In this document: positions 1 through 14,747 of the stretch, in pieces
Numbering within the stretch: position 1 is the stretch's first letter
How the letters are laid out: each line of letters opens with the position of its first letter
Source of the DNA: Phenylobacterium sp. CCH9-H3
GTDB taxonomy: Bacteria > Pseudomonadota > Alphaproteobacteria > Caulobacterales > Caulobacteraceae
Assembly (NCBI RefSeq): GCF_001557235.1
Contig: NZ_LSJI01000093.1
Coordinates: forward strand, 15,097-79,096
DNA: 64,000 nt
Direction: 5' to 3'
The notes under the pieces: generated by a model
What the model saw: only the letters and a program-made list of their open reading frames with translations
Told to the model about the DNA's origin: nothing
Databases searched by the model: none
Program-made: the position numbers and the translations under genes

Positions 1-1021
1 GATGCGCCAGGGTTGGTCGGCAATGGTGTTCCAGGCGGCGCAGCAGTTGTCGACGATGTCGTCGTAGTTGCGGAAGATGCGGTTGGAGAGGTGGTTGTCG
101 CGCATGAACTGCCAGAGGTTCTCGACCGGATTGAGCTCCGGGGCCTTGGCCGGCAGCGGCAGGAGGGTGATGTTCGATGGCGTCTGCAGGGCCTGGGAGG
201 TGCGCCATCCGGCCTGGTCGAGCAGCAGGACGGCGTGATGACCGGGCTCGACCTGGGCGCTGATCTCGGCCAGGTGGGCGTTCATGGCCTGGGTGTCGCA
301 GTAGGGCATGACAAGGCCGGCGGCGGTTCCCTTCTGCGGACAGATCGCGCCGAAGATGTAGGCCCATTGGGTGCGCTGTTCGTTGGGCGCGGACGGACGG
401 GTTCCGCGCCTTGCCCAACGGCGGGTGAGCTTGTTCTTCTGCCCGATGCGGGCTTCATCCTGCCACCAGATCTCGAGCTCGGTCCCTTCAGCCATGCGGT
501 CGCGGATCTCCTGGACCCGCAGGGGGAAAATCTCGCTTGAAGGCCTCCAGGGCCTGCGGGTTCTGGGCATGGTGTCTGGGCCGGGCGGACAGGCGCGCAT
601 AGCCCAGACCTTTCCGGATCCGGCCCAGTCGGCTGGGGTCCAGCGACACGCCGTACTCGTCGTAGATCCAGCCCGCCAGATCGATGAGCCGCCAGCGCAC
701 CACCCCGTGGATGGCCGGGATCGGGCCGTCCTCCACCAACTGGACGACCGCCGCCAGCTGCTCCGGCGTGAGCTTCGGCTTCGCTCCCGGCGCCTTGCGG
801 TCGATCAGCTCCGCAGGACCTTCGGCATTGAACCGCAGCGCCCAGTCGCGAAGAATCTGCCGGTCCATCCCGCCTACCGCCGCGGCCTCATGGCGGCTGG
901 CGCCGTCGTAGACCGCCACCAGCGCCAGCAGACGTCGGACCTGGCGGGCGTCCCTGCTGGCCCGCGCAAGCGCGCGAAGCTGAGCGGCGTCAAAGTCCTG
1001 GCGAAGCGTGATAGGTGGCAT
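1..1021 (-). mobile_element. IS630-family transposase, two frames, cut by left edge
   Basis: DDE transposase of the IS630/Tc1 group. The N-terminal half (start 1021, frame stop at 488) has helix-turn-helix segments. Continuing in a second frame from about position 530 to the left edge, the minus strand encodes the catalytic part: QDEARIG (first Asp), LLLDQAGW (second Asp) and ELNPVENLW (Glu), all intact. The switch lies at a minus-strand TTTTCCCCC run (522-530 on the plus strand). Joining the frames needs a +1 (or -2) shift there, which could be programmed slippage or a one-base insertion in the C run. The 3' end and that terminal repeat lie outside the window, and I could not place the other inverted repeat. 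Confidence 0.9.
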
Positions 1022-1229
1022 GGCGAACCCTCCGGTCCGACGATCGAATCCTACTTCGCCGCCCCTGAGAATCCCCCCGAGTCAGGCACTGCGCCGATTG
1101 GTATAAACGTGGCTTTCACAGACAAGCCTGGTGAAGAGCAGCACAATAAACTTCGACCCGGGGGCAGAACTTCTGCGCTCAAGCTTGGTTCCAGATTCGC
1201 CTCGGCGGAACGCCTACAGCGATGGCGAG

Positions 1230-1331
1230 CAAACATTGCGACGATCACCCAAGCTGTTCGCCGACGAGACCACAGCCCCGGTGCACGATCCGGGGCGCTG
1301 CAAGATCAAGACTGGCCAGATGTGGGCATAA
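1230..1331 (+). pseudogene. IS66 transposase (TnpC) relic
   Basis: Within the stretch between the IS630 element and the TonB receptor, one frame reads KLFADETTAPVHDPGR followed by KTGQMWA and then a stop. This matches the hallmark block around the first catalytic Asp of IS66 TnpC proteins (usually LFADDT, VLDPGRGRTKTGQLW). Nothing recognisable as TnpC flanks it on either side, so it is a small degraded remnant. The rest of 1022-1359 shows no gene. Confidence 0.6.
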
Positions 1332-1359
1332 AGGCGATCAGCCAGTGACAGAAGGGGTT

Positions 1360-1393
1360 GGACCGTCTCCCTGCCCTCCCCGAGAGACGGTCC
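1360..1393. terminator. hairpin after the TonB receptor gene
   Basis: A perfect 10-bp inverted repeat (GGACCGTCTC at 1360-1369, GAGACGGTCC at 1384-1393) with a 14-nt loop lies 9 bp beyond the stop codon of the minus-strand TonB receptor. A short T run follows only on the plus strand, so its strength as an intrinsic terminator for the receptor gene is uncertain. Confidence 0.5.
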
Positions 1394-1402
1394 ATTTTCG
1401 CC

Positions 1403-3946
1403 TTAGAACCGATACTGGAGCTCTATCCCGTACGTGCGCGGGAAGTTCGGCTTCACCGTGACTCGTTGAACGCCACTGGCCGAGGGGGCTCCGGTTCGGA
1501 AGTCCTGATAGGCCAACTCATCAAAGGCATTCTTGACGTAGCCAATTACTGTGTAGCGATCGTCGGAGTCCTTCCAAAGCGCCCGGAGGTCCACGACTTC
1601 GTTCGATGGTGAGCGGAAACCCGGCTGAGCAAAAACGACGGCCTGTTGCTCGTCTGTGAAGGTGTAGGTACCCCCAAGTGTGAGATCGCCCTTAGTGAAC
1701 TCGAACGTATAATTCAACCCAAGGTTAAGCTTGTTCTCCGGAGTCAGGGGGAGCCTGTTTCCGACGAGGGTCTGGGGCCGGCTGCCGTTCGGCAACACCA
1801 CACCCGTAGGTCGCGCGCCCGCCTGTAGCGCCTTCGGGTCCGCTGTATCGACGAAACAGCAGCCGCTCTTGAGTTCGGTGTTGAGGTACGAATAGCTCGC
1901 GAAAATCTGCAGATGATCGATGGGAACCCACTGGGCCTCCATTTCCAGGCCCCAACTCACAGCGTCCAGGTTCAAAAACTGACTGCCGGTTGAGCCGGTG
2001 GCCGGATTTAGAACTACGGTAAGCGGGGCCTGAAAACCCTTGTAGTCCGCGTAGAACAGCGCGGAGTTCAGCTGGAAACGTCGCCCCAGATTCTTCTTCA
2101 ACCCGAGTTCATAGTTGTCGACGTATTCGGGATCGGCATAGGGGAACGGCGTTAGGCCATTGGACGCAAGCCAGCCGCCAGACTTGTAGCCGCGGCTGTA
2201 GCGGGCATAGGCGTTGGTGTCGGAGTCAGGTTGCCACTGCAGCCCTAAGGTCCCCGTCCAGGCGTCATAGTCTGCGGCCAAGTCACGAGTAAGGCCGCCG
2301 TTTGCCGAAGGGCGTAGATTTGCATAGAGCGGATTGGCCAAGCAAGACGCGATGGTCGGGCCGCCACAGACGACAAACGTAGTGAAATCCACCGCGATCC
2401 CTTGTCCGATGGCGGCTGGTATCCCTGCGGCGGCCAAGATGGTGGTGGTGGTGTTGGTACGCGACACGTAGCGAGCCGAGTCTGTACCCGACTTCTCGTC
2501 AACCGTGTACCGGAGGCCACCCGTAAGCGTGAGCGTATCGGTGATATCATAGTCGATCTGAACAAAGGCCGCATAGGAGTCGACCTCCAGCGCACCTTCT
2601 ACGAAGAGGTAGTTCCCCTTCGGGTTCGGCGCCGCCGGAACTCCGGTCGCCAGACTGATCGGGTTCTGAACGGCCGGATCGTTGAGGACTCGCTGGCCCT
2701 GGGGTTGCGCGTAGGTTTGATGATACTGGTACAGACCGACGATCCAGCGCAGTGGCCCGTCCGTGTTCGATGACAGGTTGATCTCATTGGAGTACCATTT
2801 CTGGTCCTCGCGGTAGAAGAACCTCTGGTCTGGCGACACGCCCGTGGCGGTGTAGGCGCCGAAAGGCGTCGCGGTCGGCACGCTGAATAGGCCGGTGCGC
2901 GATGAACGATCCTCATCCCCAGCCGTGTCGTAGACATAGGATTGGTAGCCGGCCAGATACTTGAGGGTCATGCCGCCAAGATCCCAGGTGAGATCGAAGT
3001 GCAGTCGCTCATGATTGCTGAGCTTACCTTCACTCGTCTGGTTGGTGTTGATCTTGTAGGGGTCGGTCATCGCCGGATTAATTCCTGCGAAGCCGAAGGT
3101 CGGATTGTAGTAGAGGCCAGCGTTGCCGAGGCCGGTCGGGGACGTGGTGTCGTAGCGGCTCGTGATCGACTCGTGGACGTTGCCAACGCCGAAGCTGTCA
3201 TCCCAGTCGAACTTCGAATAGCGCAGGCGGGCCGTGATGTTCTCGCCGAGATCGGCTTCCAGCTGAGCCTCGACTATGTACCGTTTAACAGCGCTGGAAT
3301 CGCCGGCAGGCCCGAGGTTCTCGAAGAAGCCTTCCTCTCGGCGTTCCAGAGAGCCGCCGAGGAGGAAGCGCAGGCCATCCGTGATCGGTCCTCGAACCAA
3401 GGCGTCGGTTCGCCAGGTGCCGTAGTTCCCAAGGACGGCGCGGACCTCACCATTGAAATCCTCTGTCGGACGTTTGGCGATGATGTTCAGCGCCCCGCCG
3501 ATGGAATTGCGCCCGTACAGGGTGCCTTGCGGGCCGCGCAGAATCTCCGTGCGTTCGATAAACAGCGACGGCGTGCCGGCATCAAACATGGAGTTTGAGA
3601 AAATGCCGTCCGAGTACAGCGCGACGGAAGGATCCGTGCCAATAGCATTGGTCAGGCGACCAAACCCCCGGATCGAGAGGCGGTCGTTGTTGGTATAGGT
3701 GACGCTCGGCGAAACGCGCGCCAAGTCCTCGACATTAGCTACCCCTAGCAGGTCGCGCCGTTCGCTTGTATAGGCCGTTACGGCCACAGGAACATCCTGA
3801 AGGCTCTGCTCACGTTTTTCAGCCGTCACCACCAGCTCTTCAATGGTGAAGCCGGTGTCTTGCGCCCAACTAGGCGAGGCCGCAGCCAGAGCCAGCGCGG
3901 ATGCGCTGCATGCGAAGGCGAGTCGCAGATTTACGTAGTTTTTCAT
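1403..3946 (-). CDS. TonB-dependent receptor, MarR-linked
   Basis: Outer-membrane TonB-dependent receptor of 847 residues. I start at 3946 because MKNYVNLR begins a normal signal peptide (cleavage likely near SPSWA-QD, about residue 26) and a strong GGGAGG ribosome site lies just upstream; the much longer open frame to 4348 is not coding. The TonB box/plug region begins with IEELVVTAEKREQS; the plug carries ILRGPQGTLYGRNSIGGALN, and the chain ends in an aromatic residue (YRF), as outer-membrane barrels do. This plug type is common in sphingomonads and caulobacters for uptake of poorly soluble organics or siderophores. The divergent MarR gene suggests control by a small, perhaps aromatic, ligand, but the substrate cannot be read from the sequence. 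Confidence 0.9.
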   Translation of the reverse strand: MKNYVNLRLAFACSASALALAAASPSWAQDTGFTIEELVVTAEKREQSLQDVPVAVTAYTSERRDLLGVANVEDLARVSPSVTYTNNDRLSIRGFGRLTNAIGTDPSVALYSDGIFSNSMFDAGTPSLFIERTEILRGPQGTLYGRNSIGGALNIIAKRPTEDFNGEVRAVLGNYGTWRTDALVRGPITDGLRFLLGGSLERREEGFFENLGPAGDSSAVKRYIVEAQLEADLGENITARLRYSKFDWDDSFGVGNVHESITSRYDTTSPTGLGNAGLYYNPTFGFAGINPAMTDPYKINTNQTSEGKLSNHERLHFDLTWDLGGMTLKYLAGYQSYVYDTAGDEDRSSRTGLFSVPTATPFGAYTATGVSPDQRFFYREDQKWYSNEINLSSNTDGPLRWIVGLYQYHQTYAQPQGQRVLNDPAVQNPISLATGVPAAPNPKGNYLFVEGALEVDSYAAFVQIDYDITDTLTLTGGLRYTVDEKSGTDSARYVSRTNTTTTILAAAGIPAAIGQGIAVDFTTFVVCGGPTIASCLANPLYANLRPSANGGLTRDLAADYDAWTGTLGLQWQPDSDTNAYARYSRGYKSGGWLASNGLTPFPYADPEYVDNYELGLKKNLGRRFQLNSALFYADYKGFQAPLTVVLNPATGSTGSQFLNLDAVSWGLEMEAQWVPIDHLQIFASYSYLNTELKSGCCFVDTADPKALQAGARPTGVVLPNGSRPQTLVGNRLPLTPENKLNLGLNYTFEFTKGDLTLGGTYTFTDEQQAVVFAQPGFRSPSNEVVDLRALWKDSDDRYTVIGYVKNAFDELAYQDFRTGAPSASGVQRVTVKPNFPRTYGIELQYRF

Positions 3947-3998
3947 GTTCCCTCCCAGTCCGCTAGGCGTTTTTGCCTCTATGCTGACGGTAATGGAG

Positions 3999-4017
3999 AT
4001 TACTATAATGTCATTGA
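3999..4017. promoter_or_regulatory. candidate MarR operator, receptor side
   Basis: ATTACTATAATGTCATTGA lies about 50 bp upstream of the TonB receptor start. A closely similar sequence, differing by one insertion and three substitutions, lies just upstream of the MarR gene at 4457-4476. An adjoining GTAAT-ATTAC inverted repeat (3990-4003) overlaps it. Repeat copies at both ends of a divergent intergenic region are typical of MarR autoregulation; the assignment is inferred. Confidence 0.4.
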
Positions 4018-4456
4018 CGATGGCAAACGGTCCCCGCGCCCGGCCTCTGACTGGCGGTCGCTTGTAGACTCGCGCGAGCACTTCGTTTGCTCGCGGCCAG
4101 TCGAGATGGCTACAGGCCGCCTGAGTATTGGGTGCCTTGGCGCAGCTACCGCCTTCGTCGCCGCGCGCTTTGTCTTGCATCGCCGGCGGCGGTGTTATCT
4201 TGGGGGGCCTCTCGGGGCATGCGGCGAGCCGCCAGGCCGCTCGTGACCACACGGTCGAACGCACGGCGTTTGCAAAGACGCGGGAAGACGCCCCCGAGTC
4301 GGCTCGTCTGCCGCCTCTCGGCCTGGGAGGCCCTAACGCGAGCCACAAATCCGAGGACGGTCAGAGTGCTCGACAGGTTGCGCAAAGGTCGTCACATGAC
4401 AGGAACCGTTGTTCACATCGCCTGGAATTGGCCCGGCCACGATTCCAGCCTTAAAT

Positions 4457-4476
4457 ATTACTGATAGAGTCATGGA
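4457..4476. promoter_or_regulatory. candidate MarR operator, regulator side
   Basis: ATTACTGATAGAGTCATGGA, the partner of the element at 3999-4017, ends 13 bp before the MarR start codon and includes its GGA ribosome-site bases. A repressor bound here would block the MarR gene itself. Confidence 0.4.
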
Positions 4477-4489
4477 GTTGTAGCCGACG

Positions 4490-4975
4490 ATGCCCGGAGA
4501 ATCTAACGAGCTCCTCTCACAGGATGAGTTGGACAGCGGTTTGAGCCCTATGGGCGGAGGCTACCTCCTGGCCGATGTCACCCGCCTGATGCGAGCGGCT
4601 TTTGATGACAAGATGCAGGAACTCGGCCTGACCGCGTCCACTTGGCGGGTTCTGATCTACCTGCACCGTAGCGACGGCGTCTCTCAGGCGGCTTTGGCCC
4701 GGCAGCTTGAGGTCAGCCGGGCCTCGCTTGGGCAAATGATTGATCGATTGGAGCAAAGTGGGCACGTAATGCGCGCTGAACATTCAGAAGATCGGCGCGT
4801 CTGGTGCGTCCATCTCACCGCAAAGGCGTTAGCCATGATGCCCGATGTGGAGAGCAAGGCCAAGAGTTTGCACGCTTTGAGTTTTGGAAAGCTCGCCCCG
4901 AAGGACTACAAGAAACTCCTGAAGATACTCTTAGAGCTCCGCGATATCCTGGTGACGAATGAAAGCGCCGCTTGA
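4490..4975 (+). CDS. MarR-family transcriptional regulator
   Basis: A 161-residue winged-helix regulator, normal length for MarR. The recognition helix region reads SQAALARQLEVSRASLGQMI (about residues 63-82), followed by a wing with the family's D-R-R signature (EDRRVWCVHLT, about 100-110). Helices at both ends would form the dimer interface. It lies divergent to the TonB receptor and, by family precedent, likely represses it and itself until a small hydrophobic or aromatic ligand binds. The ligand is unknown. Confidence 0.9.
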   Translation: MPGESNELLSQDELDSGLSPMGGGYLLADVTRLMRAAFDDKMQELGLTASTWRVLIYLHRSDGVSQAALARQLEVSRASLGQMIDRLEQSGHVMRAEHSEDRRVWCVHLTAKALAMMPDVESKAKSLHALSFGKLAPKDYKKLLKILLELRDILVTNESAA

Positions 4976-5023
4976 GGTCGCTCGAAGGTCGCGGATAGGC
5001 CATCGCGCATCTGCCATGAAAAG

Positions 5024-5053
5024 AGGCGGCGCGGCCGGTCGTCCGCGCCGCCT
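5024..5053. terminator. GC-rich hairpin after MarR gene
   Basis: A perfect 11-bp stem (5024-5034 with 5043-5053, 8-nt loop) lies about 50 bp after the MarR stop. A TTTT run follows on the minus strand, so it may also end minus-strand transcripts. The remainder of the 332-bp gap to 5307 is AT-richer and shows no gene. Confidence 0.55.
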
Positions 5054-5307
5054 AAGCTTCCCTTGGCCCCGGGAGGTAGGTCGGGGCAGCGGGGCAAGAT
5101 GGGGTCACAGTGCGCATTCTCTCGGGCGAAAATCCGAATACCGGGCGAGCCTCATCGATCGACATTCTATACGCGGCCTTATCGTAAGCTACAATATGAT
5201 AAATGACCTCGCGATGAGCATCGGCGATGAGGGCTATGGTCGGCCGTATTGAAATGGCCAAGCGCGGCGGGGTGCCTGGTGCGGTGAGGGCGCGGGTCGC
5301 TCCGAGG

Positions 5308-5793
5308 TCAGTCGTCTGCCGTTGGTGGTTCTTCCGGCCGCGGGTCGAGGCGTTCCGGCGATAGGGCGTCGCGAAGGGCGACGCGGTGACGCGCTTCGGC
5401 GGCGAGCTGTTCGAAGGCCAGATTGAAGGCGGCGACGCACGAGCTGGCGTCCAGCTGCGCCATGTCATCGCCCACCGTCTGGTCGAACTCCTGCAGCGCG
5501 ATCAAGAAGGCGGTGGTGAGCTTGTTGCCGGAGGTCCTGAGGGCGAAGGCGGGGGATCTGATCAGGGCGGCGACGACGAGGCCGTAGGCGTCGGCGTCCG
5601 TGAACTCGGCGAAGGCCTTCAGACGCTCGAACTTGAGCGGGCCGACGCCGGCCTCCAGATATTCGTACGACCGCTTGCCGATGCCCATGGCGGCGGCCAC
5701 CTCGGCGGTCCTGAACCGGCGGGCGCGCCGGATGAGGCGCAGCGCCATGGACAGCAGGTGCTCGATGGTCGAGGCAGAAGTCGGACGGGCCAT
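5308..5793 (-). CDS. helix-turn-helix protein of unknown role
   Basis: A 161-residue protein beginning MARPTSASTIEHLL. Residues about 18-55 (FRTAEVAAAMGIGKRSYEYLEAG) look like an XRE-type helix-turn-helix; the rest is helical with an acidic, proline-rich tail and no recognised domain. The start is uncertain: the frame stays open to an ATG at 5856, but the residues between are arginine-rich and unlike a protein start. It is divergent from the GntR gene of the lasso-peptide locus, so a regulatory role there is possible but unproven. Confidence 0.6.
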   Translation of the reverse strand: MARPTSASTIEHLLSMALRLIRRARRFRTAEVAAAMGIGKRSYEYLEAGVGPLKFERLKAFAEFTDADAYGLVVAALIRSPAFALRTSGNKLTTAFLIALQEFDQTVGDDMAQLDASSCVAAFNLAFEQLAAEARHRVALRDALSPERLDPRPEEPPTADD

Positions 5794-5960
5794 GGCCTCG
5801 ACGCGCTGGGGTAGCAACTCGGAGACGATGCAACCTCGCCTCCTTCGCCTCCACAATCAATATGCAAACAGTCGCCTGAGAAACAGATCGGGCGCCTGGT
5901 GTGTCCAGAGAACAAAATCGGCCTGATATTCCAGCGGCGGCGACTTCGAAAATAGAGAAT

Positions 5961-5987
5961 GCGCAAGAAGTTTGCGCGGTTCGCGCA
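5961..5987. promoter_or_regulatory. overlapping GCGC palindromes upstream of GntR gene
   Basis: GCGCA-N7-TGCGC (5961-5977) overlaps TGCGCG-GTT-CGCGCA (5973-5987) in the region between the helix-turn-helix gene and the GntR gene. A similar TTTGCGC...GCGC element (6822-6836) lies upstream of the lasso precursor. They may be operators for the GntR protein; this is inference from position and similarity only. No other feature was seen in 5794-6130. Confidence 0.3.
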
Positions 5988-6130
5988 GACATTCGGCGCG
6001 TATAGAAGTGTGTAGTGGGGAGGCTAACGAATATTTTCATCGAGTCGTTCGAATTCTATTGTTGAACTTCGCTCTTCGAAGAATGGTGGATGCGTATTTG
6101 ACGCTTAGGCCGCCGCGTTGGGAGGCGATA

Positions 6131-6793
6131 TTGATTCGAGAGCGGGACCCATTCGGACGAGCGCTGGCGACCCTGAGGGTCCGCTTGCGCGCCGGCGCCT
6201 ATGGTCAGGGTCAGCCGCTCGCCATCGTCGAACTGGCTCGAGAACTCGATCTCAGCCCGACGCCGGTGCGCGAAGCGCTGTCGCGACTGGCGGGGCAGGG
6301 GCTGGTGGAGGACCGGCGAGGCCGCGGCTATTTTAGTCCGAGGCTCGAGGCGCTCGACCTGGCGGAGCTCTATGACCTGAGCGCGGTGCATGTGCGCCTT
6401 GCGCTGCAGGGGCTGGACGCGGTCGGACGCCGGCGAAGGTCGCCCGACACGGTCTCCGCGCGGACCGTGCTGGAGACCCTCGGCGAGGACGCGGCCTCGC
6501 CGGACGCCTTGGCGGGGGTCTACGAGACCCTCCTCGAACACATCGTTCTGGTTGCCGGCAACCGAACCTTGCTGGTCCAGCACCGGATCACTTCCGATCG
6601 CCTTGGCCCCGCCCGCCGCGTCGAGCCCTTGGTCCTGGGCGACGTCCGCGCCGAACTGGCGGAGCTTGCGGATCGCTTCGACGCGGCCGATTGGCGCGGG
6701 GTGGACGTGGCGGCTCAAGCCGCCCTGGCCCGGCGACGCGAGGCCTCGGCCGAGATCGCCGCCGTGCTTCGCGAGCGCTATTTAAGTATATGA
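6131..6793 (+). CDS. GntR-family regulator of the lasso-peptide locus
   Basis: About 220 residues. A GntR winged helix lies near the N-terminus (LARELDLSPTPVREALSRLA, then GLVEDRRGRGYF), followed by a helical effector domain of FadR-like size without clear metal ligands. I chose the TTG at 6131 because GGGAGG lies 5 bp upstream; an in-frame ATG at 6083 has only a weak ribosome site. It stands immediately before the lasso precursor gene in the same direction, with a 92-bp AT-rich promoter-like gap between them, so it most likely controls the lasso genes. Confidence 0.8.
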   Translation: MIRERDPFGRALATLRVRLRAGAYGQGQPLAIVELARELDLSPTPVREALSRLAGQGLVEDRRGRGYFSPRLEALDLAELYDLSAVHVRLALQGLDAVGRRRRSPDTVSARTVLETLGEDAASPDALAGVYETLLEHIVLVAGNRTLLVQHRITSDRLGPARRVEPLVLGDVRAELAELADRFDAADWRGVDVAAQAALARRREASAEIAAVLRERYLSI

Positions 6794-6821
6794 AATATAT
6801 ATCGAATATAGTTTGAATCTC

Positions 6822-6862
6822 TTTGCGCCGGCGCGCTCCATCGACAGGCCGCGATCCGCGGC
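6822..6862 (+). promoter_or_regulatory. promoter/leader region of the lasso precursor
   Basis: Downstream of a strikingly AT-rich tract (about 6780-6820) come TTTGCGCCGGCGCGC (6822-6836, containing the palindrome GCGCCGGCGC) and a small perfect hairpin GCCGCG-ATC-CGCGGC (6848-6862), which ends 11 nt before the AAGGAG ribosome site. The first resembles the GCGC palindromes in front of the GntR gene. The exact promoter hexamers are not clear. Confidence 0.35.
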
Positions 6863-6885
6863 AGTTGCAATGCAAGGAGATGGAA

Positions 6886-6999
6886 ATGTCCAAGACCCGC
6901 ACGTTCAAGGTGATCCGCATGGGCGCCGCCCGCCGCCTCACCAAGGGCATCGAAGGCGTCGGCCTGGAGCTGGCGACGTTCAAGCGGGAGGAAGGCTGA
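6886..6999 (+). CDS. lasso peptide precursor (A protein)
   Basis: A 37-residue gene, too short for ordinary ORF lists, with a near-ideal AAGGAG ribosome site 6 nt before ATG. The leader MSKTRTFKVIRMGAARRLTK ends in Thr-Lys before Gly, the same LTK|G junction as microcin J25, with Thr at the conserved penultimate position. The predicted core is GIEGVGLELATFKREEG: Gly1 can form the macrolactam with Glu8, the standard 8-residue ring, leaving a 9-residue tail in which Phe12, Lys13 or Arg14 could hold the thread. The B and C genes follow directly. Expected mass of the cyclised 17-mer is about 1785.9 Da (monoisotopic), calculated from the sequence. Because the local cyclase is broken, the peptide may no longer mature. 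Confidence 0.88.
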   Translation: MSKTRTFKVIRMGAARRLTKGIEGVGLELATFKREEG

Positions 7000-7006
7000 C
7001 CTCCCC

Positions 7007-7044
7007 GCGGCGCCGGCTCGCGCCGGCGCCGCCCCTCCAGGGGC
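7007..7044 (+). terminator. double hairpin between lasso A and B genes
   Basis: An 11-bp perfect stem (7007-7017 with 7022-7032, loop TCGC) lies 7 nt after the precursor stop and is followed at once by a second small hairpin (GCCCCT-CC-AGGGGC). There is no T run. Such a structure after a RiPP precursor commonly stabilises its mRNA or dampens read-through, giving more substrate than enzyme. Confidence 0.55.
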
Positions 7045-7086
7045 GGCCCTGAGGTCGCCCAGTGACCGCTCAAGCCAAGGCGAAAC

Positions 7087-7734
7087 ATGCTCGTCCATTT
7101 GGGTCCGGACATTCACCTGGTGGCGGTCGGTGCGGACCTGGTGGTCCTGAACATCGCGGCCGACGCCTATTTCTGCCTGCCAGACGCCGCCTGCGCGGTC
7201 GCGCCCAGCCGGGGGTACGGGTTTGAGATCGATGGAGACTTGGCCGAGGCCTTCGCCGCGGCCGGCTTCCTCGCCGGCCCCGATGACCCGCGACGTCAGC
7301 CCCTGAACCTGCCCCCGGCGTCCCGCTTCGACCTCTGCGGCCATGTCGCCGCGCCCCGCGGGTCCGACATGGGGCGGATGGCGCGCGCCTTCGGGAGCAT
7401 GGTGCGCCTCTACTATGGCGCGCCCCTCAAACACCTGGTCGCCACGGCGGCGTGGGCCCGGCCCCGCCGCGCGCGCGAAGGCGACCTGGACGTGTTGGCG
7501 GATCGCGCGGCGCGGTTCGATCAGCTGCTGCCCTGGGTCCCCTTCCAGGGCGAGTGCCTGTTCCGCGCCTTCATGCTGCTACGCTTCCTGCGGCTGGGCG
7601 GCCAGGATGCAACCTGGGTGTTCGGGGTCCGCACCTGGCCGTTTCAGGCCCATTGCTGGCTACAATCGGGATCGACCGTACTGGACGACGCCGTGGAGCG
7701 GGTGCGCCCGTTCACGCCGATCTTCGCGGTCTAG
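7087..7734 (+). CDS. lasso peptide B protein (RRE plus leader peptidase)
   Basis: A 215-residue protein with both halves of a proteobacterial lasso B protein. Residues 1 to about 75 form the PqqD-like leader-recognition element (VVLNIAADAYFCLP at about 18-31). The C-terminal part is the transglutaminase-like cysteine protease: Cys in FQGECLFRAF (about 155), His in FQAHCWLQ (about 196) and Asp in VLDDAVERV (about 205). It would bind the leader and cut after Lys20 of the precursor. It appears intact. The gene order A-B-C differs from the A-C-B usual in caulobacters. Confidence 0.88.
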   Translation: MLVHLGPDIHLVAVGADLVVLNIAADAYFCLPDAACAVAPSRGYGFEIDGDLAEAFAAAGFLAGPDDPRRQPLNLPPASRFDLCGHVAAPRGSDMGRMARAFGSMVRLYYGAPLKHLVATAAWARPRRAREGDLDVLADRAARFDQLLPWVPFQGECLFRAFMLLRFLRLGGQDATWVFGVRTWPFQAHCWLQSGSTVLDDAVERVRPFTPIFAV

Positions 7735-7739
7735 GCGCG

Positions 7740-9686
7740 ATGGGAGACTACCTCGCCTTGGCCTGGCGGGCCGAAAATCTCCTGGCCCGGACCCGCGTGG
7801 CGCAGCTGAAGCGGCGGGCCACGGCCGCCGGCGCCTACCGGGTCGTCGCCGACGAGGCGCAGTTCCTGCTGCTGGTCTGCGCCTGCCTCGCCCCGCCCGT
7901 TCGGCGGATCGGCCGGGACGGCTGGGTGGTCGGCGACCTGTTCGGCCGCGCCGGCTTCGAGCCAGCCCCGGACGTGCTCAAAGTCTGCGAGGCGGGTGGA
8001 GGAGCGCAGGCCAGGCGGCTGATCGCGCGCTATTGGGGGCGCTACGTGGCGCTGTGGCCGGACGGCGACACGCTCTCGGCCTTGCGCGATCCCTCCGGCG
8101 CGGTCGAGGCCTTGAGGTGGCGAATCGACGGCGTGACACTTGTGGCGTCGGACCTGCCGCCCGCGGATCTCCTCGGCCCCTTGGCGTGGCGGGCCGAAAT
8201 CTGCTGGCCGGTCGTGGCGGGGTTTCTGTCGTCGTCCTCGGGCGCGGCCGCCGCGGAGCTTGGGCTGTCGGGTGTCGAAGCGGCCCTGCCCGGGGCGAGG
8301 CTGGGGTCCCGCAGCGTGACTGCGGGCGGAGAGCTCCTCTGGACCCCGGCCGCCTGCGCCCGCGCCGAGGCCTCGGACCCGGCCGTCCTGGTGGCGGCGG
8401 TGGATGGCGCCGCGCGCGCCTTCGCCGCCGGCGACCCGGGCGTGATCGCGGAGATCTCCGGCGGGCTGGACTCGGCCATCGTCGCCTCGGCGCTGCGCCG
8501 CGGGCCCGCCCTGGAGGTGAAGGCCTGGACGAACTTCTATGCCCGCGATCCGGAAGCCGACGAGCGGGACTTCGCGCGCGCCGTGGCCCAGCGCCTTGGG
8601 GTCGGTCTGACCGAGATCCTGAAGCCCGACCAGACCCTGACCTGCGAGGCGCTGGAGGGAATGCCCACGGGGCTGCGGCCCAGCGTCAACGGCCTGGATC
8701 GGCAGTATGACGCCGATGTCGTGCGCCTCGCCCGCGAGCATGGTGCGTGTCGCGTCCTCACCGGACAGGGGGGTGACGCGGTGTTCTTCCAGAGGGTCAC
8801 GGCGCTCGCCGCGGCCGATCTGCGGGGTCGAGGCCTTGGCGCGGCGCAATGGGCCGGGGTCCTGGCCGCCATGGCGCGTAGCACGCGGCGCTCGGTCTGG
8901 TCGGTCGGCCGGGAGGCCTTATGGGGGCGCCTGGCGGGCGTGCGCCCCAAGCCCGCCGTCGCGCCGTTCGTGTCGGCCGATGCGCGCCGTCTGGCGCGCC
9001 GGCTTGGCCCCCATCCCTGGCTTGCGCGCGGCCAGGCCGTCGCGCCCGCCAAGGCCCTGCAGATCGAGGCGCTGATCTATGCCTCCGGCGCCTATGGCGC
9101 GTCGGAGCGCGGGCGGCGGATCGACCTCGTGCATCCGCTCTTGTCACAGCCGGTGATCGAAGCCTGCCTGGCGATCCCGGTGGCGGACCTGACCTGGGGC
9201 GGGCGGGTCATGGGGATCTGCGGCGGCTACCAGATTCTGGGCGCCCGGATTGCCGACCCCGAGGGCGTAGAGGGGCCATCCGGGTCGGCGGCGGGCCTGG
9301 GCCTCCTGGACATCGAGACGGTGCTGGCCGGCGACAAGGTGCTGCGCCCCGTCTCCGGCGAGCTTCACGGCGGCGCCGCGTTCCGGGGCTACGAGATGCA
9401 CATCGGCCGCACGCACGGCCAGGGCCTGACGAGGCCCATGCTGACCTTCGCGGATGGCTCGCAGGGCGGCGCGGTCTCGCCCGACGGCCGGATCTCCGGC
9501 TGCTACGTCCATGGCCTGTTCGCCGACCGCAGCGCCCGCGCGGCCATCCTGGCCGGCCTGGGGGCCGCCGCCCGGGCGGGCGACCACGCCGTCGCCGTGG
9601 ACACGGCGCTGGACGAGATCGCCGCTGAGCTCGAGGGCGCGCTCGATATCGCCCGCCTCGCGCGACTGGCTGGCCTCCCGGCCTGA
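7740..9686 (+). CDS. truncated lasso cyclase fused to CobQ glutaminase domain
   Basis: One open frame of 648 residues made of two unrelated parts. Residues 1 to about 488 are a lasso macrolactam synthetase (C protein, asparagine synthetase B-like): a degenerate glutaminase-like N-terminus, then the ATP-binding SGGLDSAIV at about 239 and HPLLSQPVIEACLAIP near 472. The sequence then passes at a shared Gly-Gly-Arg (about 9199-9207) into the C-terminal part of cobyric acid synthase: VMGICGGYQILG with the nucleophile Cys, GLGLLD, FRGYEMHIG and the His of YVHGLF. The last roughly 100 residues of the cyclase, including the RRSKG-type lysine segment, and the whole N-terminal half of CobQ are missing. 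Either activity is doubtful. It starts 6 bp after the B gene. Confidence 0.85.
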   Translation: MGDYLALAWRAENLLARTRVAQLKRRATAAGAYRVVADEAQFLLLVCACLAPPVRRIGRDGWVVGDLFGRAGFEPAPDVLKVCEAGGGAQARRLIARYWGRYVALWPDGDTLSALRDPSGAVEALRWRIDGVTLVASDLPPADLLGPLAWRAEICWPVVAGFLSSSSGAAAAELGLSGVEAALPGARLGSRSVTAGGELLWTPAACARAEASDPAVLVAAVDGAARAFAAGDPGVIAEISGGLDSAIVASALRRGPALEVKAWTNFYARDPEADERDFARAVAQRLGVGLTEILKPDQTLTCEALEGMPTGLRPSVNGLDRQYDADVVRLAREHGACRVLTGQGGDAVFFQRVTALAAADLRGRGLGAAQWAGVLAAMARSTRRSVWSVGREALWGRLAGVRPKPAVAPFVSADARRLARRLGPHPWLARGQAVAPAKALQIEALIYASGAYGASERGRRIDLVHPLLSQPVIEACLAIPVADLTWGGRVMGICGGYQILGARIADPEGVEGPSGSAAGLGLLDIETVLAGDKVLRPVSGELHGGAAFRGYEMHIGRTHGQGLTRPMLTFADGSQGGAVSPDGRISGCYVHGLFADRSARAAILAGLGAAARAGDHAVAVDTALDEIAAELEGALDIARLARLAGLPA

Positions 9687-9761
9687 CAGACAAGCCCGAG
9701 GTTGACCAGGCGGGTATACCAAATTGAGAAATCCTCAGTCGTCGTCATTTTGCGGGTGAGA

Positions 9762-9779
9762 CTGTCTTTGGCCTGTCAT
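9762..9779 (+). promoter_or_regulatory. PHO box (PhoB site) upstream of phnD
   Basis: CTGTCTTTGGCCTGTCAT is two 7-bp units (CTGTCTT and CTGTCAT) separated by 4 bp, the exact 11-bp-period layout of the classical PhoB box, differing from it in one unit at one or two bases. It lies about 40 bp before the start of the phosphonate/phosphate-type importer operon. Confidence 0.7.
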
Positions 9780-9819
9780 CAGGATGGGGCAATGCCTTCG
9801 GCGTACCGGAGGACCCCTC

Positions 9820-10737
9820 GTGCTACGCCTGCTGACGCTTTGCCTCGCGTTCCTGATCCCGACCGCGGCCTGGAGCGCCGCGCCGCTGGGTTCGGCGCAG
9901 AACCCGCTGCGGGTCGTGCTCATTCCGGCGGACGGCGGCACCGAGGACGGCACCCGCGCCGACTTCCAGCCGGTGTTCAACGCCATCACCCGCACCTCCG
10001 GCCTGCACTTCACCCTGCGGGTGGGGCAGTCCTACAACGCCGTGGTCGAGACGATGTGCAACGGCGGCGCCGACGTCGCCTTCTTCGGGCCGGTCGCCTA
10101 TGTCCAGGCGCGCCGCCGCGGCTGCGCCGAACTGCTGGCAGTCTCGGTGGAGAACGGCCGCTCGACCTATTACGCGGGCCTGTTCACCAGGGCGAAGGGC
10201 CCGGTGCGCCGGCTGTCGGACGTCAAGGGGCGGCGCGTGGCCTTCGGCGACCTCAACTCCGCCTCCTCGTTCATCGCGCCGATGGCGATGCTCCTGGACG
10301 CTGGCATCGACCCGGTCCGCGACCTTGGCGCCGTGCGCCTGACGGGCAGTCACGCCAACAGCCTGGCCGCCCTGATGCAGGGACAGGCCGACGCCGCGGC
10401 GCTGTCGTTCGACTCGTTCGAGAAGGCGGTGAACCAGGGCGTGGTGTCCGGCCGCGAGGTGAGCGTCCTTGCCCGCAGCGCGCCCATCCCCAACCCCCCG
10501 CTGGGCATGAGCACCCGCCTGCCGCCGACCATGAAGGCGCGGCTGAAGCGGGCCTTCGCGACGGTCTCCAAGGCGCCTGGGGTCACGCCGGATATGATCC
10601 GCGGCTACGGCGGCAAGCGGGTGGACGGCTACGACACCGCGTTTCCGGAGCGGAGCTACGCCGCCGCCGCCGCCATGCTGGCGCGCGTCGACGATCCGCT
10701 GAAGGCGGCGATCCTGAAGAAGGCGGCCGCCCGATGA
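9820..10737 (+). CDS. phnD: PhnD-type periplasmic binding protein
   Basis: Substrate-binding protein of a phosphate/phosphite/phosphonate ABC importer, 305 residues. I chose the GTG at 9820, with GGAGG 7 nt upstream, because it places the signal peptide (LLTLCLAFLIPTAAWSA) at the N-terminus. Family blocks include NPLRVVLIPADGGTEDG, DVAFFGPVAYVQA and RVAFGDLNSASSFIAP. It overlaps the ATPase gene by 4 bp (ATGA) and follows a PHO box, which supports a phosphorus compound as substrate; phosphonate, phosphite or phosphate ester cannot be told apart. Confidence 0.88.
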   Translation: MLRLLTLCLAFLIPTAAWSAAPLGSAQNPLRVVLIPADGGTEDGTRADFQPVFNAITRTSGLHFTLRVGQSYNAVVETMCNGGADVAFFGPVAYVQARRRGCAELLAVSVENGRSTYYAGLFTRAKGPVRRLSDVKGRRVAFGDLNSASSFIAPMAMLLDAGIDPVRDLGAVRLTGSHANSLAALMQGQADAAALSFDSFEKAVNQGVVSGREVSVLARSAPIPNPPLGMSTRLPPTMKARLKRAFATVSKAPGVTPDMIRGYGGKRVDGYDTAFPERSYAAAAAMLARVDDPLKAAILKKAAAR

Positions 10738-11495
10738 GCGCCGAGCCGCACATCGCCTTCGAAGGCGCCTCCAAGCGGTTCGCGGATGGGACCCTGGCGC
10801 TGGACGACGTCACCTTCGGCGTTCCGCGCGGCCAGGTCTGCGCGCTTGTGGGGCCGTCGGGCAGCGGGAAATCGACACTGCTGCGCGCCGTGAACGGGCT
10901 GACCGAGCTCACCGGCGGAGCCGTGCGGGTCGATGGAACGCCCGTCGACGCGGCCCACCTCTCCCAGATCCGGCGCAAGGTGGGCATGGTCCACCAACAC
11001 TACGGCCTCGTGGACCGCGCCAGCGTCGCCGAGAACATGATCGCCGGTGCGATCGCCGAGATCGCCACCTGGCGTGCGCTGCTCGGCCTCTATCCGACCG
11101 CCTACCGGGCCAAGGCCTGCACGCTGCTGGCCGAGGTGGGGCTTTCGCCCGAGCACCTGACCCGGCGGGTGTCCGAGCTGTCGGGGGGGCAGCGCCAGCG
11201 AGTCGGCATCGCCCGCGCCCTGATGCTGGACCCCGAGATTCTGGTCGCGGACGAGCCGGTGGCCAGCCTGGATCCCCGGGTGAGCGTCGAGGTGCTGGAC
11301 CTGATGCGCCGCGAGGCGCAGGCGCGGGGCGCGAGCGTCCTGTGCAGCCTGCACCAGGTGGATCTGGCGCGGCGTTTCGCTGATCGCATCGTGGCCCTGC
11401 GCGCCGGCCGCCTGATGTTCGACGGTCCGGCCGCCGCCTTCGACGAGGCCGCGGCGCTGTCGATCTACGGCTCGGCCGCGGAGGCGGCGCGATGA
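10734..11495 (+). CDS. phnC: PhnC-type ABC transporter ATPase
   Basis: A 253-residue ABC ATPase with Walker A GPSGSGKST (about 40), signature LSGGQRQRVGIARAL, Walker B ILVADEP and an H-loop (CSLHQVD). GMVHQHYGLVDRASVAENM is the PhnC-type Q-loop region. It overlaps phnD and phnE by 4 bp each, so the three subunits are translationally coupled. It powers uptake of the ligand captured by PhnD. Confidence 0.9.
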   Translation: MSAEPHIAFEGASKRFADGTLALDDVTFGVPRGQVCALVGPSGSGKSTLLRAVNGLTELTGGAVRVDGTPVDAAHLSQIRRKVGMVHQHYGLVDRASVAENMIAGAIAEIATWRALLGLYPTAYRAKACTLLAEVGLSPEHLTRRVSELSGGQRQRVGIARALMLDPEILVADEPVASLDPRVSVEVLDLMRREAQARGASVLCSLHQVDLARRFADRIVALRAGRLMFDGPAAAFDEAAALSIYGSAAEAAR

Positions 11496-12508
11496 GCCTG
11501 GCGCGCGATTCTGCGGCCACGCCGGCGCCCGCCTGGCGCTTCCCGCGAGCCCTGCGTCCCCGCGTCGTGGCCGGCTGGCTTCTGCTGGTGGTCGCAATCC
11601 TGGCGTCTGCGCCGAGCGTCGAGGCGGGCCGGATGCTCCGGATGACGGGCGAGGCCATCGCGGCGTTGGCTACCGGCGGGACGTCGCAGGTCGTGGACGG
11701 CCTCGGCGCCATCGGCCGCCAGATGATCCCGCTGCAGATCTCGGAACGCCGCGAGGTCTCGCGGATCGAGGGCTTCGACCGCGACCGCCTGCCGCTCTTC
11801 TCGCGCATCGAGGTCGTCGACACCCGCACCGAGCGCCTGGATCCCGAGACGTTCCAGATGCGCGCGGTGGTCGAGCGCACTGAATACCTGGTGGAGCCGG
11901 TGGGCTACCTCGTCCGCGTCGGCGTCAAGCTCTGGGAGACCTTGATGATCGCGTTCTGGGGCACGCTGCTGGCGGTGCTCATGAGCGCCCCCCTGGCCTT
12001 CCTGTCGGCCCGGAACCTGACGCCGCACGTCTGGGTCTACGGCGGCGCGCGGGCCTTGGTCAGCCTGCTTCGCGCGGTGCCCGAGCTGGTCAGCGCGCTG
12101 TTCCTCGTCGTCGCCTACGGCTTCGGTCCGGTGGCGGGCGTCCTGGCCCTGGCGCTCCATGGCGCGGGTTTTCTCGGCAAGTTCTACGCCGAGGATGTCG
12201 AGGCGGCAGACCCCAAGCCGCAGGAAGCCCTGGCGGCCACCGGCGCGAACCGGCTGAAGGTGCTGCGCTTCGCGATCCTGCCGCAGGTGCTGCCGCAATA
12301 CATCGGCTACACCCTCTACGTCCTCGACCGGAACTTCCGCATGGCCACGGTCGTCGGTCTGGTGGGGGCCGGGGGCATCGGCCAGGAGTTGAAGGGCCGG
12401 TTCGACATGTACAACTACCATCATGTCGGCACGATCCTGGTGGCCATGTTCGCGGCTGTGTTCCTGATCGATCAGGTCTCGGCCCGCCTGCGCAGGGCTC
12501 ACTTCTAG
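11492..12508 (+). CDS. phnE: PhnE-type ABC transporter permease
   Basis: A 338-residue inner-membrane permease. A first membrane segment (about 30-47) is followed by a periplasmic stretch and a C-terminal block of membrane helices with the EAA loop that docks on the ATPase (EAADPKPQEALAATGANRLK). VGLVGAGGIGQELKGRFDMYNY near the C-terminus is typical of PhnE. It is the last gene of the phnDCE operon. Confidence 0.9.
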   Translation: MSLARDSAATPAPAWRFPRALRPRVVAGWLLLVVAILASAPSVEAGRMLRMTGEAIAALATGGTSQVVDGLGAIGRQMIPLQISERREVSRIEGFDRDRLPLFSRIEVVDTRTERLDPETFQMRAVVERTEYLVEPVGYLVRVGVKLWETLMIAFWGTLLAVLMSAPLAFLSARNLTPHVWVYGGARALVSLLRAVPELVSALFLVVAYGFGPVAGVLALALHGAGFLGKFYAEDVEAADPKPQEALAATGANRLKVLRFAILPQVLPQYIGYTLYVLDRNFRMATVVGLVGAGGIGQELKGRFDMYNYHHVGTILVAMFAAVFLIDQVSARLRRAHF

Positions 12509-12552
12509 CCGCCGCGACAATCTCATCATGATGTCGCTCGTGGAATGAAGAA

Positions 12553-12592
12553 TATTCACTAGCTCGTCATGGACGCCTCACGTGAGCGTCAC
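12553..12592 (+). promoter_or_regulatory. PHO-box-like array upstream of phospholipase C
   Basis: TCA recurs four times at exactly 11-bp spacing (12556, 12567, 12578, 12589), giving units TATTCAC, TCGTCAT, GCCTCAC and GCGTCAC. This is the phasing of tandem PhoB half-sites (CTGTCAT every 11 bp). The first two units and their surroundings (AATATTCACTA, CGTCA) recur upstream of the neighbouring TonB receptor. Confidence 0.55.
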
Positions 12593-12638
12593 GGCCAGAC
12601 GTCACCTTGCCCTCCAGATCAAGCGATGGGGGTCAGTG

Positions 12639-14747
12639 ATGGACGAGACGAACCGGCGGACATTCCTCAGGCTCGCGACGGGCGCGGCGGCCGGCGGGGC
12701 GGCGATCGCCGCGATGCCGGTGGCGATCCAGCGGGCGCTGGCCCTTCCGGCGCGGCAGGTGTCCGGTACGATCCAGGACGTGAAGCACGTGGTGATCCTG
12801 ATGCAGGAGAACCGGTCCTTCGATCACTACTTCGGGACCCTGCGCGGCGTGCGCGGTTTCGGCGACCGGCATCCCATTCCCCTCGTCGGCGGGCGCAACG
12901 TCTGGCGGCAGTCGGACGGCAAGCGCGAACTGCCGCCGTTCCACCTCGACACCAGCAAGACCGACGCTCTGCGCGTGCCGGGCACGCCTCACTCCTACGC
13001 CGACGCCCAGGCCGCCTGGGGGCAGGGCAAGATCGAGGAGTGGCCGCGGTTCAAGACGGCCTATTCGATGGGCTACTACCGCCGGGAGGACATCCCCTTC
13101 CAGTTCGCCTTGGCCGAGGCGTTCACGATCTGCGACGCCTACCACTGCTCGGTGACGGCCGGGACGGACCCCAACCGCATCGTCTTCTGGTCGGGATCGA
13201 GCTCGGACCCGGAGCTGCGCGCCAAGGGCGTCGACTGCACGGACGACCATGCCGAACCCGACAACTGGCGTTGCTGGGTCAAGGGCGCCCTGCCGGAGCC
13301 GGGCTACACCTACGCGGGCAACAGCCTGAAGTGGGACACCATCCCGGACGTCCTGGAGAAGGCCGGCGTTTCATGGCGGATCTACCAGGACCCCAACAAC
13401 AACTGGACCGGCGCCATGCACGGCGGCCTGGCGTTCGAGAGCTTCCGGACCTGCAAGCCGGGCTCGCCGCTCTACGAGAAGGGCATGAGCCACTGGTCGC
13501 TGGAACAGCTGGCGCGCGACGTGAAGGAGGGGACGCTGCCCGCGGTGAGCTGGGTGCTTCCATCCCCGCCCTATTCCGAACATCCGAGCGCCTCGACGCC
13601 GGTGCAGGGCGCCGAGTTCACCGCCCGGGTCCTGGAGGCCCTGACCGCCAATCCCGACGTCTGGGGCAAGACCGTCTTCTTTCTCACCTTCGACGAGAAC
13701 GACGGCCAGTTCGACCACCTGCCGCCGCCGGCGCCGCCGTCCTACGACGCCGAGGGCCGGCTCGCGGGGAAGTCCACTCTGGACCTGCGCGGGCACTATT
13801 TCTCGGACCCCCAACGCAAGCACATCGACGCGCGTGACACGCAGAGCGGCCTCGTCCGCCCGTTCGGCCTCGGGCCGCGGGTGCCGATGTACGTGGTCTC
13901 GCCCTGGAGCAAGGGCGGCTGGGTCAGCTCCGAGACCTTCGACCACACGTCGGTGGGCCAGTTCCTGGAGACGCGGTTCGGGGTCACGGTGCCGGGGATC
14001 AGCCCGTGGCACCGGGCGGTCTGCGGCGATCTCACCTCCGCCTTCGATTTCGCCAAGCCGAACGATCCGGTGTTCCCGGATCTGCCGGACGTCAGCGGCG
14101 CCTCGGCGGTGGTGCTGCAACACATCCAACGGCCGCGCATCATGCCGCCGGAGCAACCCCAGCCGGTGCGGGCGGAAACGGGTGTGCGGCCCTCGCGCGC
14201 CTTGCCCTACGTGCTCAACGTCAAGTCGGAGGTCGTGGCCGGCGAGGTGCGGCTCGAGTTCCGTAATGGGGGCAAGGCCGGCGCCGTGTTCCACGTCTAC
14301 GACCGCCTGCATCTCGACCGCATCCCGCGGCGCTATACCGTCGAGGCCGGCAAGACGGTCTCGGACGTCTGGGCGACGGCGGGCGACGGCGGCCGCTACG
14401 ACCTTTCGGTCTTCAGCCACAACGGCTTCCGCCGGGACGTGCAGGGCGAGACCGGCGGCGCGCTGGAGATCGAGGTGCGGTACCGCCCGCAGGCGCGCGA
14501 GGTGGAGCTGGAGATCCGCAACGGCTCGACCGAGGCCCAGGCGGCCGTGATCCGCCACAACGCCTACGGCGAGGCGGGCGGCGAGGTGCGCGTGCCGCCC
14601 GGGGGCCGTTCGACGCGGAAGTGGTCGGTGGCCGACGCGGGCGACTGGTACGACGTCAGCGTCACCGCGCCCGGCGTGACCCGCCGCGCGGCCGGCCGGA
14701 TGGAGACCGGCGCGCACGGGATCAGCGACCCCGCCATGGGCGCCTAG
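12639..14747 (+). CDS. phospholipase C, Tat-exported (phosphocholine-type)
   Basis: A 702-residue enzyme of the bacterial non-toxic phospholipase C (phosphoesterase) family, which releases phosphoryl head groups from phospholipids. The N-terminus has a Tat motif (TNRRTFLRL) and a hydrophobic stretch. Catalytic-domain marks are LMQENRSFDHYFGTLRGVRGF (about 52-72), GTDPNRIVFWSG and FDENDGQFDHLPPP (about 348). Two C-terminal beta domains typical of this family occupy about 500-695. I start at 12639, after a G-rich ribosome site, so that the Tat signal is terminal. The PHO-box-like array and flanking phosphorus genes suggest a role in lipid phosphate scavenging. Confidence 0.9.
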   Translation: MDETNRRTFLRLATGAAAGGAAIAAMPVAIQRALALPARQVSGTIQDVKHVVILMQENRSFDHYFGTLRGVRGFGDRHPIPLVGGRNVWRQSDGKRELPPFHLDTSKTDALRVPGTPHSYADAQAAWGQGKIEEWPRFKTAYSMGYYRREDIPFQFALAEAFTICDAYHCSVTAGTDPNRIVFWSGSSSDPELRAKGVDCTDDHAEPDNWRCWVKGALPEPGYTYAGNSLKWDTIPDVLEKAGVSWRIYQDPNNNWTGAMHGGLAFESFRTCKPGSPLYEKGMSHWSLEQLARDVKEGTLPAVSWVLPSPPYSEHPSASTPVQGAEFTARVLEALTANPDVWGKTVFFLTFDENDGQFDHLPPPAPPSYDAEGRLAGKSTLDLRGHYFSDPQRKHIDARDTQSGLVRPFGLGPRVPMYVVSPWSKGGWVSSETFDHTSVGQFLETRFGVTVPGISPWHRAVCGDLTSAFDFAKPNDPVFPDLPDVSGASAVVLQHIQRPRIMPPEQPQPVRAETGVRPSRALPYVLNVKSEVVAGEVRLEFRNGGKAGAVFHVYDRLHLDRIPRRYTVEAGKTVSDVWATAGDGGRYDLSVFSHNGFRRDVQGETGGALEIEVRYRPQAREVELEIRNGSTEAQAAVIRHNAYGEAGGEVRVPPGGRSTRKWSVADAGDWYDVSVTAPGVTRRAAGRMETGAHGISDPAMGA

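What the first reader, a model, noticed from the sequence alone, without database searches (positions are those of the whole stretch)
9150..9686. Lasso cyclase fused in frame to the CobQ glutaminase domain
The cyclase reads normally to HPLLSQPVIEACLAIPVADLTWGGR, then continues without a stop as VMGICGGYQ, the class I glutaminase core of cobyric acid synthase, complete to its C-terminus with Cys and His intact. Both families carry Gly-Gly-Arg at this point, so the join falls on short shared sequence. The cyclase loses about 100 C-terminal residues that include a lysine segment important in the asparagine synthetase fold. It may be a microhomology deletion that destroyed two pathways, an assembly chimera, or less likely a new two-domain enzyme.
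Basis: partly seen in the sequence, partly recalled or inferred. Interest (0 to 1): 0.75.

Follow-up and report, generated by a model that had tools for sequence, protein, structure and literature searches.

The report
Accidental cyclase-CobQ join, not an enzyme
Two unrelated bacterial genes appear stuck together in this one assembled sequence, but each exists whole elsewhere and the joined protein lacks essential pieces of both, so it is most likely an assembly error or a chance deletion rather than a new enzyme.

Summary
The in-frame join is really in the sequence: ORF 7740-9686 (648 aa) is residues 1-489 of a lasso cyclase followed by residues 324-482 of cobyric acid synthase. It is very unlikely to be a new two-domain enzyme. 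Both partners exist intact, with 100% amino-acid identity over the shared parts: P0002 (594-aa cyclase) and P0008 (482-aa CobQ). Only P0001, the window's own protein, has both Pfam domains among the 120 rows listed of 729 hits. Of 390 Caulobacteraceae genomes, 161 match the intact cyclase, and every match listed runs to residue 582-594. The join removes 105 cyclase residues, including 15 that are invariant in 21 intact cyclases. The breakpoint lies on 10 nt, possibly 12, of shared G+C-rich DNA. From there the window is collinear (about 92%) with a Phenylobacterium chromosome; the lasso side has no match in the 134 kb compared. I judge a chimeric join (0.50) barely likelier than a real one-strain rearrangement (0.45). 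Reads would decide. Low interest.

The parts
6083..6793 (+). GntR-family regulator at the head of the lasso cluster
   Evidence: Pfam PF00392, 50.1 bits
6886..6999 (+). Lasso precursor, MSKTRTFKVIRMGAARRLTKGIEGVGLELATFKREEG; core probably starts at GIEGVGLE (ring Gly1-Glu8, inferred)
   Evidence: Translation; position next to the B and C genes; core assignment recalled from known lasso precursors, not tested
7087..7734 (+). Lasso B protein with C-terminal transglutaminase-like protease domain
   Evidence: PF13471, 74.4 bits; NF033537 lasso_biosyn_B2, 72.8 bits against cut-off 33
7740..9206 (+). Lasso cyclase, residues 1-489 of 594, truncated
   Evidence: Identical to intact P0002 over residues 1-489; PF00733
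9196..9205 (+). Breakpoint: 10 nt GGGGCGGGCG shared by cyclase and cobQ (up to 9207, 12 nt, if this species' cobQ uses CGG for Arg323)
   Evidence: Comparison with G001 cobQ
9207..9686 (+). 3' end of cobQ (residues 324-482 of 482): part of the class I glutaminase domain without its first 76 residues
   Evidence: Identical to P0008; GATase_3 positions 75-194 of 196; 88.6% DNA identity to G001 C3:335451-335941
9784..10737 (+). Phosphonate-type substrate-binding protein (PhnD-like); start of the collinear chromosomal stretch downstream of cobQ
   Evidence: PF12974, 189.7 bits; 92.3% identity to G001 C3 from 9725

Best explanation
The reading frame is an accidental, non-functional join of two genes that normally lie apart. 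The left half of the contig is a lasso-peptide cluster on accessory DNA; the right half is Phenylobacterium chromosome starting inside cobQ. They are joined at 10-12 nt of shared G+C-rich sequence. I think it slightly more likely that the join was made in library preparation or assembly (two ends joined over a minimal overlap, or a chimeric molecule) than in a living cell. Shown: the join, its single occurrence in the rows listed, intact copies of both partners, and the loss of conserved parts on both sides. Inferred: that it arose in vitro or in silico.
For: Fusion seen once: only P0001 (1 member, 1 contig of 79,096 bases) carries both PF00733 and PF07685 among 120 rows listed of 729 hits. 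Intact partners identical over the shared parts: cyclase P0002 (9 members, 8 contigs as printed, longest 71,030) and CobQ P0008 (2 members, 1 contig of 151,292). Window 1-9195 has no match at E <= 1e-3 in 134 kb of sister contig C3, which includes 44 kb upstream of cobQ, whereas 9196-64000 is collinear with it at 88-94%. All cyclase matches listed from 161 of 390 Caulobacteraceae genomes run to query residue 582-594.
Against: A 10-12 nt overlap is shorter than usual assembly k-mers (recalled) and is also what a real microhomology-mediated deletion would leave. Identity to intact copies also fits a very recent real event. Composition does not help: the left side deviates from the right (tetranucleotide distance 0.314 against 0.153-0.238 in 21 overlapping windows), but lasso clusters in five stretches of related genomes deviate as much (0.264-0.319). 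The source labels of the intact partners differ (cyclase jgi/lgn, CobQ ncbi), but the contig figures of this database are incomplete: the B protein's cluster is printed with one contig of 1,383 bases although the gene also lies in this window. So nothing firm follows from labels or counts. No read or coverage data could be examined.
Confidence: 0.5

Rival explanations
1. A real, strain-specific rearrangement (deletion, or inversion/transposition with loss) in one Phenylobacterium lineage, using the 10-12 nt microhomology. It cut off the end of the lasso cyclase and whatever lay beyond it (in related clusters a convergent S9 peptidase and/or a TonB receptor), together with the upstream part of cobQ. 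It leaves an expressed or decaying pseudogene.
For: A shared stretch of at least 10 nt exactly at the join is unlikely by chance: about 8e-5 of position pairs between the two genes lie in such a match. The right side looks like natural chromosome: cobQ precedes the phn genes on the same strand in sister genome G001 too; the kdp operon between them there gave no match in the window or in seven stretches of other genomes. Beyond the cyclase, on the opposite strand, an S9 peptidase gene was found in three related loci tested and a TonB receptor in three tested, consistent with truncation of the cluster here. The composition of the left side is normal for a lasso cluster of this genus.
Against: Seen in one contig only among the rows listed; intact copies of both genes exist elsewhere; no lasso cluster in the 44 kb upstream of cobQ in the sister genome, though the sister may simply lack the island.
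Confidence: 0.45
2. A functional two-domain enzyme in which the cyclase receives ammonia or is regulated by a CobQ-type glutaminase.
For: Open frame with the glutaminase Cys and His retained. Relatives of the asparagine synthetase fold elsewhere use a glutaminase domain (recalled).
Against: No homologue of the fusion among 120 rows listed of 729. The cyclase lacks 15 of the 66 residues invariant among 21 intact homologues. The glutaminase lacks its first 76 residues; the alignment to the solved glutaminase 5n9m places the start of the retained part at about chain residue 88 of 243. Lasso cyclases do not need glutamine-derived ammonia (recalled). The fold of the hybrid was not predicted.
Confidence: 0.02

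Closest known systems
Lasso peptide cyclase (C protein, PF00733, asparagine-synthetase-like)
   Same: Residues 1-489, identical to intact P0002, following a GntR regulator, a precursor and a B protein
   Different: Lacks the last 105 residues, including Lys512 and 14 other invariant positions
Cobyric acid synthase CobQ/CbiP, glutaminase domain GATase_3 (PF07685)
   Same: Residues 324-482, identical to P0008; nucleophile Cys (GICGGYQ) and His (CYVHGLF) retained (roles recalled)
   Different: Lacks the synthetase domain (CbiA/AAA_26) and the first 76 residues of the glutaminase domain
Chimeric contigs or chance microhomology junctions in metagenome assemblies (recalled; search listings only)
   Same: Single occurrence in the rows listed, intact partners elsewhere, short shared sequence at the breakpoint
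   Different: Not proven here; reads are not available, and it is not known which assembler made this contig

Membership tests
Functional lasso cyclase (PF00733) | Asparagine-synthase domain over its full length | tested here: not met
   Profile positions 14-194 of 354 in the fusion, 14-354 in P0002
Functional lasso cyclase (PF00733) | ATP-binding SGGLDS motif (recalled as the pyrophosphatase motif) | tested here: met
   S240 G241 G242 L243 D244 S245 invariant in the alignment of 22
Functional lasso cyclase (PF00733) | Conserved C-terminal segment with the RRSKGD lysine | tested here: not met
   K512 invariant in 21 of 21 intact cyclases and absent from the fusion
Functional lasso cyclase (PF00733) | NCBIfam lasso cyclase score above cut-off | tested here: inconclusive
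   NF033535: 24 bits for the fusion against cut-off 525, but intact P0002 also fails (45.5), so the model does not discriminate here
Functional lasso cyclase (PF00733) | Lasso cluster context (precursor, B protein) | tested here: met
   Precursor-like ORF 6886-6999, B protein NF033537 above cut-off
Cobyric acid synthase CobQ | Equivalog score above the curated cut-off | tested here: not met
   NF001989 122.5 against 273 and TIGR00313 87.1 against 309.9; intact P0008 scores 601.5 and 423.3
Cobyric acid synthase CobQ | N-terminal nucleotide-binding synthetase domain | tested here: not met
   PF01656/PF13500 not reported for P0001, present in P0008
Class I glutaminase domain GATase_3 | Complete domain with nucleophile Cys and catalytic His | tested here: not met
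   Cys and His present, but only positions 75-194 of 196 matched
Conserved fusion protein family | Homologues of the full fusion in several species | tested here: not met
   1 protein (the window's own) with both domains among 120 listed of 729 hits; every cyclase match listed from 161 of 390 genomes reaches residue 582 or beyond, more matches not listed
Assembly or library chimera | No reads spanning the junction, or a coverage step | not testable with these tools
   No reads; the source genome is not held

The most novel reading that the evidence does not exclude
A genuine gene-fusion allele in one Phenylobacterium strain makes a 648-aa hybrid in which the CobQ remnant replaces the cyclase C-terminus and keeps some activity or regulatory role.
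Probability: 0.02. Interest if true: 0.6.

Novelty: not a real feature. Interest (0 to 1): 0.08.

Why it matters
If it were a working enzyme it would be an unusual domain architecture for RiPP biosynthesis. As found, its use is practical: this contig should not be used to claim a cyclase-glutaminase fusion, nor linkage between this lasso cluster and the cobQ-phn chromosome region, without read support.

Tried and rejected
Conserved fusion: not supported. Lasso cluster on a plasmid: of 850 plasmid records with a match to window 7000-13000, the 20 listed match cobQ or the phn side, none the cyclase body. Cyclase DNA in viral contigs: no exact match to a 39-base piece and no relative confirmed. 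Second breakpoint after cobQ: the kdp operon between cobQ and phn in G001 (8.2 kb) first looked like a second anomaly, but kdpA, kdpD and kdpE gave no match in the window or in seven stretches of other genomes (L120-L126), so I read kdp as peculiar to G001 and the cobQ-phn adjacency as natural (inference). Reciprocal fusion (CobQ start with cyclase end): none among the 120 listed of 8000 CobQ hits. Cyclase against solved structures: no match. Composition as evidence for a chimera: dropped. My first comparison with relatives used the first 4,190 bases of each fetched stretch, mostly upstream of the clusters; measured on the clusters themselves the relatives deviate as much as the window. Source labels as evidence: dropped. 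Structure prediction of the hybrid was not run. Literature: search listings only, no paper opened; 0 papers hold 'lasso peptide', 'cobyric acid synthase' and 'fusion' together; some searches gave general listings.

Full report
What is there. The frame 7740-9686 (+) is open for 648 residues. It lies in a lasso-peptide cluster: GntR regulator (6083-6793), a precursor-like ORF MSKTRTFKVIRMGAARRLTKGIEGVGLELATFKREEG (6886-6999), B protein (7087-7734; PF13471; NF033537 above its cut-off), then the cyclase. Residues 1-489 are cyclase and residues 490-648 are the end of cobyric acid synthase.

How much is missing. Intact cyclase P0002 has 594 residues; the fusion lacks the last 105. In an alignment of 21 intact cyclases chosen from the rows, 66 columns are invariant and 15 of them lie beyond residue 489 (R491, A494, R495, A497, P503, R509, K512, G520, L534, L535, G537, L554, E575, W577, W581, alignment). 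On the other side, intact CobQ P0008 has 482 residues and the fusion keeps 324-482. Pfam GATase_3 covers P0008 248-431 (profile 1-194), but in the fusion only profile positions 75-194 are matched. The glutaminase domain is therefore not complete: its first 76 residues, with the conserved ILPGTK stretch, are gone. The alignment to the solved glutaminase 5n9m places the start of the retained part at about chain residue 88 of 243. Neither half is an intact domain by its Pfam profile. The fold of the hybrid was not predicted.

Is it found elsewhere? A search of about 5.8 billion proteins with the whole fusion gave 729 hits among 7994 candidates scored. Of the 120 listed, only P0001 (the window's own protein, 1 contig of 79,096 bases) has both domains. 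An intact cyclase identical over residues 1-489 (P0002; 9 members, 8 contigs as printed, longest 71,030, sources jgi/lgn) and an intact CobQ identical over its last 159 residues (P0008; 2 members, 1 contig of 151,292, source ncbi) both exist. These contig figures are not complete: the B protein, identical to the window's, is printed with 9 members but one contig of 1,383 bases, so I draw nothing firm from contig counts or source labels. Among 390 Caulobacteraceae genomes, 161 have a match to the intact cyclase at E <= 1e-30, and every match listed extends to query residue 582-594 (more matches were not listed). The best-scoring of them is 48% identical (G076), so no genome of the cyclase's own close kin is held there. 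In 18 of 18 fetched loci (17 distinct, since L127 and L133 are the same place) the alignment continues past the breakpoint to residue 582 or beyond.

The breakpoint. The window reads TGG GGC GGG CGG GTC ATG at 9195-9212. The cobQ of sister genome G001 reads CGG GGC GGG CGC GTC ATG. The exact shared stretch is GGGGCGGGCG (9196-9205), and 12 nt if the cobQ of this species has CGG there. Between the cyclase part and G001 cobQ there are 16 maximal matches of 10 or 11 nt, and about 8e-5 of all position pairs lie within one. The join was therefore probably guided by shared sequence, which fits microhomology-mediated recombination and also joining of ends over a minimal overlap. I recall that some short-read assemblers close gaps on overlaps of about 10 nt; that was not checked here, and the assembler of this contig is not known.

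The two sides. Window 9196-64000 is collinear with contig C3 of G001 (titled Phenylobacterium sp. RIFCSPHIGHO2_01_FULL_69_31) at 87.8-93.8% identity, apart from local gaps and an 8.2-kb kdp operon that G001 carries between cobQ and phnD. kdpA, kdpD and kdpE gave no match in the window or in seven stretches from other genomes, so the cobQ-phn adjacency in the window is probably natural and the only odd join is the one at 9196-9207. Window 1-9195 has no match at E <= 1e-3 in the 134 kb of C3 compared, which includes 44 kb upstream of cobQ; elsewhere in G001 it finds only short, weak matches, and G001's own two cyclases are about 38% identical. The left side differs in composition (tetranucleotide distance 0.314 for 5000-9190 and 0.266 for 1000-5000, against 0.153-0.238 for 21 overlapping windows on the right), but lasso clusters in five stretches of related genomes give 0.264-0.319, so this is what an acquired lasso cluster of this genus looks like and does not speak for a chimera. 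In relatives an S9-family peptidase gene lies beyond the cyclase on the opposite strand in the three loci tested for it (L127, L128, L130) and a TonB receptor in the three tested (L128, L129, L131); in the window these are replaced by the chromosome.

Interpretation. A working two-domain enzyme is very unlikely (about 2%): one occurrence, both domains cut, intact versions of both genes elsewhere. The choice between an assembly or library chimera (about 50%) and a real, private rearrangement (about 45%) cannot be settled without reads. Single occurrence, intact identical partners and the absence of a lasso cluster near cobQ in the sister genome lean to a chimera; the short microhomology, the ordinary composition of the lasso side and the natural chromosomal side leave a real event fully possible. 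'Two pathways destroyed' cannot be claimed, because the source genome is not held.

Verdict. The feature is ordinary: an accidental junction, not a gene family.

Noticed in passing
window 1-1021 (-): Transposase-like gene in two overlapping frames (1-600 and 488-1021), resembling an IS630-type element (name recalled); helix-turn-helix domains found in the second frame.
   Followed up: partly
window 1001-5000: G+C of 0.59-0.61, against 0.66-0.75 from about 6.5 kb to 20 kb; holds a TonB receptor (1403-4348, -) and a MarR regulator (4490-4975).
   Followed up: partly
L001 10810-19035 (G001 C3): A kdp operon sits between cobQ and phnD in the sister genome (named from recall of the proteins) but gave no match in the window or in seven stretches of other genomes; the genes upstream of phnD differ among the three relatives looked at (L120, L121, L122).
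   Followed up: partly
L127-L131: Lasso B and cyclase genes lie side by side in all five stretches, with DNA similar to the window's GntR gene upstream in several and an S9 peptidase (candidate isopeptidase) and/or TonB receptor on the opposite strand beyond. Precursor genes were not looked for.
   Followed up: partly
protein database rows: Contig counts and longest-contig figures are not complete for a cluster (P0221 is printed with one contig of 1,383 bases although the same protein is encoded in this window).
   Followed up: no
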